Shown: positions 32,901-35,900 of the stretch, in pieces | Layout of the letters: the number at the start of each line of letters is the position of its first letter | How positions within the stretch are numbered: the first letter of the stretch is position 1 | From: Apostichopus japonicus | Lineage: Eukaryota > Echinodermata > Holothuroidea > Aspidochirotida > Stichopodidae | Reading direction: 5' to 3' | DNA length: 64,000 bases | Assembly (NCBI RefSeq): GCF_037975245.1 | Contig: NC_092570.1 | Location: 6,303,001-6,367,000, forward strand | Translations under genes and position numbers: made by a program | The notes under the pieces: model-generated | What the model was told of the DNA's origin: nothing | The model's database searches: none | The model's input: the letters and a program-made list of their open reading frames with translations, nothing else

Positions 32901-35900
32901 GGGGTACGTAAACAATGAATTTAGAATTCACAAAACTGGACAAACTTGTCAGACAAAGAAAAACTGGCGGTAAACAAATAATATTTATGGTATCTTAGAG
33001 AATCTTGGTTCAGTAAATAAAGTTAAATAGGTGTTAACAAGTGAAGAACATATGTCAAAAGAAATTATACGCGGACCTCTTTGATATTCCAGGGCGATTT
33101 TTCTTATATTTGAATTTTTTTTTTTCGCCCACGCAAATTGTGCTTTCGAGGGTGAATCGCCCGTCGCACCTGTGTATTTCCGACGCTGAGTACAATCTGT
33201 TTGTTGATATAACCTGTTAATTCTTTTGTCTCTCTCTTGACTTGACCTATGACCTCTCTGTCTGTGGCTTTGTCCAGGCGTTTATGTCCATGTTCCAAAT
33301 CCTCACCCAGGAAGCCTGGGTTGAGGTAATGACTGAGTGTATGTTAGCTGCTGGTTCATACAGCCCAATAGTGGCAGTGTTTTTCCTGTGTTACCATCTG
33401 TTCACCAACGTGGTAAGTAACAGCCGGTGTAAACTAACCGTCTGTGATCGAAAACCAGGAGAAGTCTGCATCCCGTCATCAGCTGCATTCTCATCTGTGT
33501 GACATCATCAAATTGGTCAGAAAAGTCAAAAAATGAAAGAAAAAAACCAAACCAAGAGAGGATATCAAAACCATGGAAAGATAACCAGAGAAAAAGGATA
33601 GAAACATTTAAATCCTTAAATTTATTTTAGTTTAGTTGAACTTTATGATCCTAAATACCTGCCGAGTAATATTGGTGATTCTGCATTGAAAAGATCCCCC
33701 CTATGCAAAATAAAAAAGAATAACAAAACAGCTAAATTCATGAATTACTTTGTTGATGTTGGCAGGCTCCGTGGTAAAATTCAATATGGCAGCCTTATGA
33801 TTCTTCAAAATGTGTGAGTCGACTGTTATAATTCTTCCAGACTTTAAAAGCAATATGCAGGCATGAGCTTTTTCCGCGAATTCGCGGAATATCGGTGATT
33901 TCTTTTCTACCACGGGGACAAAAACTATCATCCTAACACACTGTAGCATATGCAAACTGGAGCCTATACCGCAATTTTTGCAAAATTCTGTGATTTTTTG
34001 TTTACCCCAGGCTCATCCCTGAATATGAAAACGTACCATTAATAACCAATTATCTCTGTGTTGTCATGAAACTGTCATGTGACTTAATATCGACCAGTTG
34101 AGGCATGTGATGTGCAGATGAGAATGTGTGTCTGTTTCTCGATTGTTAACATCCTGAGAGAGGTGGCATCTTCTAACCTGTGTGTTCTCATGCATATTCA
34201 TTATCCCCATGAGGTTTGATAAATTAAATCCGTTATAACGATGGTTGCCTATCAGCAATGGAATCAAATCACAGCACAATTAGCAAAGAGAAAATAAAAA
34301 GTTTTTTTTGGAAAAGTGTTACGTCAAAAAATATTCTTTTAGCTATGATTATTGTTGTTGTTGTTGTAAATCTGCCAGTTTGTGCATAACCCTGCAAACA
34401 TCATCTTTTAGCTAACATTTAAAATACAATTTTTGTTGCTTCTCTCCAAAATTACAACTTGTATTGTATAAAAAAAAAAACCTCTAAACATGGTCCAGAT
34501 ACAAAGCATCTTTGAATCCTTAACCTGGCTTATGTAGAAAACAAACATTGATGGTTACTCCCACATCATGTTTCAATACAAACATCCCAACACATTTTAA
34601 GAATGATTGAGAAATTCAACCAGGAAGTTTGATGTTTCGCAAAGAAAAAAAAAGAAGGGAAAATTTACATTACAAAAATGATCGATAGTGAATGATGGAT
34701 AGCCCTTGCAGTGATAGGCAACCATGACCTTGTTGGTCGCAGGAGGAGCAGACACCACCACCCTACATGCATCCTTAACATGCCTCTCTCTGTCTCTTCT
34801 ATTATCTCCGTCTCTCTCTCTCTCTAGGCCTTCATGTCCATGTTTCAAATCCTCACACAAAAAGGTTGGGCCATTGTCATGTATGAGTGTATGCTAAAAG
34901 CCACCACTGAGCTGGCCTTCCCAATTGCAGCCTACTTCATTTTCTACCATCTGTTTGCTACTGTGGTAAATATTTCATATTCTTATATTTCATTGCCAAG
35001 TTTATACAGTTTAATCAATTTCTCATCATGACTTTAGTTAAGCCTCCCATACAAGTCCCCAGATTCCCGTGCATTTGGTAAATATTGGAGCTGGGTACAC
35101 GTCAGTCTCTTTGTGACATAAACTTGATCAAACATAAAAAATCTTAGTAAGGAGTTTAGCTACAGAAAGAATTGCAATGGCTCAGCCTCAAACATACTGG
35201 AAGTCTTGGCAAATATGTAAAATTATTGATTTTGGGTAAACGAAAGTTTCTGACCAGATTCAGGTGAACAGAAACAGAAATACAGTTGAAAATCAAATAC
35301 TGAAATATGATACAAAAAGGGGAAAAAATCTATTATCTAAATTTGGCCAGCCATATATGAATATTCAGTAGAACTTGTTCCTAAAGGACATCCTATCATC
35401 TTGCCATTTTAATGTTTGTCTAATATAAGTAGGCTTGCATTTGCAACACAACGTTATGAATATGTATGACTTCAAGCCCAGCCAATGACAATGTGCCTGA
35501 GAGATGCATTAGCCTACTTTATTCTTTATATATTTATATATACATGATATGGCATGTTCCTGCCTGTCTTTTGCCTGTGCTTGCTGTGAAAAAATGCAAA
35601 AGAAATTCACCTAACAAGTTTGCAAATAGCAAGGTATGTTTTTAAGCTCACATGATGTTGAAAGCATGTCTGTTTTGGTAACTGCCACCTCTGTAGCAAG
35701 GGAAAAGATCATAATAACTTCTCACCAAACTGTAGACCTGGTAAGCGTGAAAATGCAAGTAAACCCAACAACTTATATATTTTTGACAGAAGTCATTCGT
35801 ATAGTCAGTTTCACTGGTGCACTGCAGAGATTTATATCATTATATTACTGAAAATTCTCCCATATTCCACTTTGTATGTGATTATATTGTTGTTTATCTT

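What the first reader, a model, noticed from the sequence alone, without database searches (positions are those of the whole stretch)
33278..34965. Tandem alternative pore exons give NALCN a Glu or Lys at the domain II filter
Exons 11a and 11b encode the same segment (domain II pore loop plus the start of S6), share [11 protein letters not shown], have the same phase on both sides and are each fully intact. One reads QEAW, the other QKGW. With Glu in domains I, III and IV, the gene predicts EEEE (calcium-channel-like) and EKEE (sodium-channel-like) pores. Switching of this kind at the domain II exon has been reported for invertebrate NALCN (Senatore and colleagues); here the genomic layout shows it directly. 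The S6 halves also differ, so more than the filter charge would change.
Basis: partly seen in the sequence, partly recalled or inferred. Interest (0 to 1): 0.85.

Follow-up and report, generated by a model that had tools for sequence, protein, structure and literature searches.

The report
Two alternative pore exons in NALCN
The gene for an animal sodium-leak channel carries two side-by-side versions of the exon that builds part of its ion filter, a known invertebrate arrangement seen here probably in a sea cucumber, with one unusual filter residue worth testing.

Summary
Window 33278-33412 (135 nt, QEAW) and 34828-34965 (138 nt, QKGW) are open, in-phase, GT-AG-flanked versions of the domain II pore loop and start of S6 in a four-domain channel that matches mammalian NALCN best. 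Domains I, III and IV have Glu at the filter, so EEEE and EKEE pores are predicted. The genome search found no other copy. The mitochondrial contig and the assembly size point to an echinoderm, probably the sea cucumber Apostichopus japonicus; this is not proven. It is exon 15a/15b of Senatore et al. 2013, already reported for echinoderms with the same order: a new example of a known kind. Two details go further. The E exon has Ala at HFS+1, against a 2023 review stating that animal NALCN always has Gly there in domains I-III. And frame, minor-type introns or close spacing do not explain exclusive choice here; the inter-exon intron holds two long complementary pairs, suggestive only. Use in transcripts and ion selectivity could not be tested.

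The parts
31541..31672 (+).
   Evidence: aligns to 7cm3
33278..33412 (+). Exon 11a: domain II pore loop plus start of S6, filter QEAW (Glu, HFS+1 Ala)
33311..33316 (+). GAA GCC: filter Glu (aligned with NALCN E554) and HFS+1 Ala of exon 11a
33413..34827 (+). Intron between the alternative exons, 1415 nt, GT-AG
33486..33497 (+). 5' arm of intronic pair 1 (12 nt perfect, with 34115-34126), 73 nt after the 11a donor
34115..34126 (+). 3' arm of intronic pair 1
34241..34254 (+). 5' arm of intronic pair 2 (14 nt perfect, with 34712-34725)
34712..34725 (+). 3' arm of intronic pair 2, 102 nt before exon 11b
34808..34827 (+). CT-repeat polypyrimidine tract and acceptor of 11b (16 of 17 pyrimidines at -20 to -4)
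34828..34965 (+). Exon 11b: alternative domain II pore loop plus start of S6, filter QKGW (Lys, HFS+1 Gly)
34861..34866 (+). AAA GGT: filter Lys and HFS+1 Gly of exon 11b
37553..37698 (+).
26074..26321 (+). Domain I pore exon, filter LEGW
54458..54578 (+). Domain III pore exon, filter LEGW (the mammalian chain has LKGW); no second copy found in the window
63121..63214 (+). Domain IV pore exon, filter GEDW

Best explanation
This is the NALCN gene of an echinoderm (probably a sea cucumber) with the tandem domain II pore exons known as 15a and 15b. Shown in sequence: two open, frame-neutral homologous exons in the order Glu then Lys, between shared flanking exons of matching phase. Inferred: splicing joins either 10-11a-12 or 10-11b-12, giving EEEE or EKEE channels. 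Inferred from published work on snail and mammalian NALCN: the Lys form is the sodium-leak form, and the Glu form has a different ion preference or calcium block.
For: Exact exons, phases and splice sites. NALCN identity: best PDB hits are NALCN chains, best E 6.8e-118 and 6.2e-162, against 3.6e-20 and 1.7e-44 for the best other channel. No other copy of either exon in the genome search. UNC79 and UNC80 relatives present. Mitochondrial contig that fits an echinoderm. Published exon 15a/15b in echinoderms, with the same order, extent and filter residues.
Against: No transcript data. The exons are frame-neutral, so the reading frame does not forbid including both or neither. No shared docking site was found in the regions tested. 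HFS+1 Ala in 11a departs from the Gly stated to be universal.
Confidence: 0.93

Rival explanations
1. The pair is not strictly exclusive: transcripts with both exons or neither are common, giving non-conducting or regulatory products.
For: 135 and 138 nt are both multiples of three, so double inclusion or double skipping keeps frame and would not trigger nonsense-mediated decay. The donors and acceptors of the three introns concerned are GT-AG with no minor-type donor (consensus recalled), and the exons are 1415 nt apart, so neither U2/U12 incompatibility nor crowding blocks 11a-11b joining.
Against: Snail cDNAs from the same exon pair were two mutually exclusive variants. A protein with two domain II pore loops would not fit a four-domain pore.
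Confidence: 0.05
2. Exon 11a is decaying or misassembled, and QEAW is an error or a rare allele, so the animal really uses one form.
For: Ala at HFS+1 is said to occur in no animal NALCN in domains I-III. Some lineages have lost exon 15a.
Against: Open frame, usable splice sites (donor 7 of 9 to a recalled consensus), a pore-loop peptide kept identical to 11b over 11 residues through synonymous changes, and an open S6 half. Only one assembly was available.
Confidence: 0.04
3. The exons do switch, but the main effect is not calcium versus sodium selectivity; they change calcium block, gating or trafficking through the P2-S6 segment and the HFS+1 residue.
For: 15 of 27 aligned residues after residue 18 differ. 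A rat NALCN structure paper argues that no domain IV side chain is at the high-field-strength layer and cites a larger effect of D1390A than E1389A on calcium block (passages). Snail NALCN currents were not distinguishable from background.
Against: A Lys in domain II or III is held to set sodium preference in this channel class (passages).
Confidence: 0.3

Closest known systems
NALCN exons 15a/15b (Lymnaea stagnalis and other lophotrochozoans, flatworms, echinoderms, hemichordates; Senatore et al. 2013, PMC3557258)
   Same: Same gene, same domain II segment (pore loop to proximal S6), E exon upstream and K exon downstream, predicted EEEE/EKEE
   Different: Exon 11a has QEAW; the published echinoderm sequences are in a supplement and figure that could not be read here, so whether they share the Ala is unknown
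NALCN exons 31a/31b of myriapods and chelicerates (PMC3557258)
   Same: Tandem E then K pore exons in NALCN
   Different: Those are in domain III (EEEE/EEKE); here one domain III pore exon was found, LEGW
Mammalian NALCN (PDB 7cm3, 6xiw, 7sx3, 7cu3)
   Same: Closest solved relative; each alternative exon is identical to the 7cm3 segment at 26 of 46 positions
   Different: QEGW in domain II and Lys in domain III, EEKE; no alternative pores seen in rat or mouse
Cav3 exons 12a/12b of invertebrates (PMC4436565)
   Same: Alternative domain II exons that change ion preference
   Different: Different channel; the exons cover the S5-P turret and end before the filter residue

Membership tests
NALCN | Four-domain channel with NALCN as closest solved relative | tested here: met
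   exons from all four domains placed (not every exon was found)
NALCN | Asp at HFS+1 of domain IV (GEDW) | tested here: met
   63182-63187; stated for NALCN in PMC10120453
NALCN | Gly at HFS+1 of domains I-III (a review's generalisation, not a defining trait) | tested here: not met
   Gly in DI, DIII and exon 11b; Ala in exon 11a. The other evidence says NALCN, so this counts against the generalisation
NALCN exons 15a/15b | Tandem homologous exons covering the domain II pore loop to proximal S6 | tested here: met
NALCN exons 15a/15b | Upstream exon Glu, downstream exon Lys | tested here: met
NALCN exons 15a/15b | Same splice junctions as other animals | tested here: inconclusive
   The extent fits the description, but residue-level junctions of other species could not be read
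NALCN exons 15a/15b | Mutually exclusive use in transcripts | not testable with these tools
   no transcript data
NALCN exons 15a/15b | 15b exons form one clade | not testable with these tools
   no other animal genomes held
NALCN exons 31a/31b | Tandem domain III pore exons, E then K | tested here: not met
   at E<0.05 the domain III pore exon matched in the window only itself and, weakly (E 0.032), the domain IV pore exon

The most novel reading that the evidence does not exclude
The Glu exon of this echinoderm NALCN has Ala at the HFS+1 (beacon) position of domain II. It would break the stated rule that all animal NALCN have Gly there, so the two exons swap two filter residues at once (E-A for K-G). 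The EEEE form may then be sodium-permeable or less calcium-blocked rather than calcium-selective.
Probability: 0.25. Interest if true: 0.45.

Novelty: new member of a known kind. Interest (0 to 1): 0.27.

Why it matters
It adds a genomic layout, probably from a commercially important echinoderm whose genome paper used RNA-seq data, to a known case where one channel gene can make two pores. The Ala next to the filter Glu is a natural test of the proposed rule that the HFS+1 residue sets ion preference. The frame-neutral exons and long intron make this a usable case for asking what enforces exclusive choice.

Tried and rejected
Second domain III pore exon (arthropod type): none in the window. 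In one search (24 exon peptides, hits printed at E<0.05) the non-self hits for pore exons were the 11a/11b pair, domain III against domain IV (E 0.032), and one aromatic-rich stretch at 58446-58490 for domain I (E 0.035); the other listed hits were for non-pore exons. The wider self-comparison (381 pairs) was printed only in part. A second NALCN gene: none found with either exon at E<=10. Frame-based exclusion: rejected, 135 and 138 nt are both multiples of three. Minor-type or crowded introns: rejected. Competing docking site: none at 9 nt in the regions tested (600 nt beside each splice site), and cross-intron maxima of 13 nt were reached by 4, 6 and 4 of 100 shuffles. Splicing-factor motifs near the exons: counted without a control, not used. 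The arms of intronic pair 2 as an abundant repeat: unlikely, 10 exact matches of the 14-mer in the genome, two of them the arms; the reversed-pattern control gave 0. A first assembly search with '671.6' listed unrelated genomes; a second wording found the Apostichopus paper. (12 of 3,494 papers listed) does not show that sea cucumber NALCN is unpublished, and no search here shows that Ala at HFS+1 is unpublished.

Full report
What is there. Exon 11a, 33278-33412, is 135 nt and exon 11b, 34828-34965, is 138 nt; each lies between AG and GT and is a whole number of codons. The exon before (31541-31672) ends phase 0 and the exon after starts phase 0 at 37553. The peptides agree at 26 of 45 aligned residues (one gap placed by hand), 14 of 18 through the pore loop and 12 of 27 after it. 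The first 11 residues are identical although 5 of 11 codons differ by synonymous changes; codon positions 1, 2 and 3 agree at 31, 31 and 22 of 45. Each finds the other by tblastn in the window at E about 1e-12. With the exact peptides at E<=10, the whole-genome search had two candidates and both were these exons. So this is a tandem exon pair within one gene, and I found no second NALCN gene; gaps or withheld stretches could hide one.

What gene. Two hand-joined composites of exon peptides matched NALCN chains best: E 6.8e-118 for 7cm3 and 6.2e-162 for 7cu3. The next family was Cav3.2 at 3.6e-20 in the first search and Cav1.2 at 1.7e-44 in the second. The composites were approximate, but the exon peptides were then placed in the window. 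Filter motifs are DI LEGW, DII QEAW or QKGW, DIII LEGW, DIV GEDW. Human NALCN has E280/E554/K1115/E1389 (passages of PMC7672056). So the predicted rings are EEEE and EKEE. Frames that I recognised by eye as the NALCN C-terminal part lie past the window end in L005 (no search was run on them). UNC79 (5 matches on C22) and UNC80 (1 match on C10) relatives are in the genome.

What organism. Contig C35 (16,099 bases) is a mitochondrial genome. Its COX1 is open with tables 5 and 9; by eye, the table 9 (echinoderm and flatworm) reading gives the more conventional protein. The 8 tRNAs that were found run F, E, -Q, L(tag), a tca tRNA (called SeC, taken as Trp), -V, -D, L(taa), the echinoid/holothuroid order as I recall it. 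PMC10344927 (passages) reports an A. japonicus assembly of 671.60 Mb, 34 scaffolds and 23 chromosomes; G000 has 671,581,487 bases in 35 contigs. The published scaffold total is 671,643,915, so the match is close but not exact. The species is likely, not shown.

How it most likely works. Splicing joins the shared flanking exons to one or the other pore exon. What enforces the choice is open. Double inclusion or double skipping would stay in frame. The sites concerned are GT-AG and the exons are 1415 nt apart, so minor-type incompatibility and crowding are unlikely. The 11b acceptor has a strong pyrimidine tract (16 of 17) but its donor lacks G at +5; 11a has 12 of 17 and gtaagt. Among the 13 acceptors and 16 donors that I listed from this gene (not all of its exons), neither pattern is unique. 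The inter-exon intron has two long complementary pairs, 33486-33497/34115-34126 (12 nt) and 34241-34254/34712-34725 (14 nt). One of 300 dinucleotide shuffles had as many pairs of 12 or more, and one of 300 had one as long. Against this, 10 of 251 overlapping same-size segments of this window (those over this intron included) had both properties, and the intron after 11b also had two such pairs with a maximum of 14 nt, each reached by 4 of 300 shuffles. Predicted duplexes of -33.7 and -37.7 kcal/mol, for stretches picked because they pair, lie beyond the 1% mark (-27.8) of 2735 random pairs in the intron, whose minimum was -42.9. No docking site shared by both exons was found in the regions tested. 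This is a lead, not a mechanism. Precedents for structure-linked choice in duplicated exons are published (PMC5224494 and PMC6071210, outlines with abstracts).

What is known. PMC3557258 (abstract, sections 6 and 8, passages) describes this arrangement: exon 15a with E upstream, 15b with K downstream, covering the pore to the proximal end of S6. The snail cDNAs were two mutually exclusive variants. Genomes of flatworms, molluscs, annelids, echinoderms and hemichordates carry both; in the snail EKEE is higher in brain and rises in glands, while EEEE is relatively higher in heart and muscle. Reviews repeat this (passages: PMC4436565, PMC10120453, PMC6259924). The finding is therefore a further example, probably in a holothuroid.

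What may be new. Exon 11a has Ala (GCC, 33314-33316) right after the filter Glu. PMC10120453 (passages and section 6) states that every animal NALCN has Gly at this HFS+1 site in domains I, II and III, and that small non-glycine residues there favour sodium permeability in one-domain channels. This exon is an exception to that statement in one assembly. I could not read the published echinoderm sequences, so others may share it. It also weakens the simple label 'calcium-channel-like' for the EEEE form. PMC7712781 (passages) further argues that in rat NALCN no domain IV side chain is at the high-field-strength layer.

Verdict. It is a new member of a known kind, of moderate to low surprise, with one residue that deserves a follow-up.

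Noticed in passing
33314-33316: HFS+1 codon of exon 11a is Ala (QEAW), against a published statement that animal NALCN always has Gly in domains I-III.
   Followed up: partly
33413-34827: Two long complementary pairs inside the inter-exon intron, one with an arm near the 11a donor and one with an arm near the 11b acceptor; rare in shuffles, less rare against other window segments.
   Followed up: partly
G000 C29:14745-16086 and 30842-31219 (L002): Further COX1 matches with TGA codons on a second contig: perhaps an extra mitochondrial contig or a nuclear insertion.
   Followed up: no
12900-13970 and 48700-49820: Inverted copies of one repeat (longest frame matches about 85-96% identical), one upstream of the first coding exon found and one in an intron.
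   Followed up: no
22990-23380, 43230-43640, 54730-55140, 63480-63930: Copies of another dispersed repeat between NALCN exons.
   Followed up: no
37889-38589: Stretch open in all three forward frames with repeated [11 protein letters not shown]-like peptides, apparently a tandem repeat, in the intron after exon 12.
   Followed up: no
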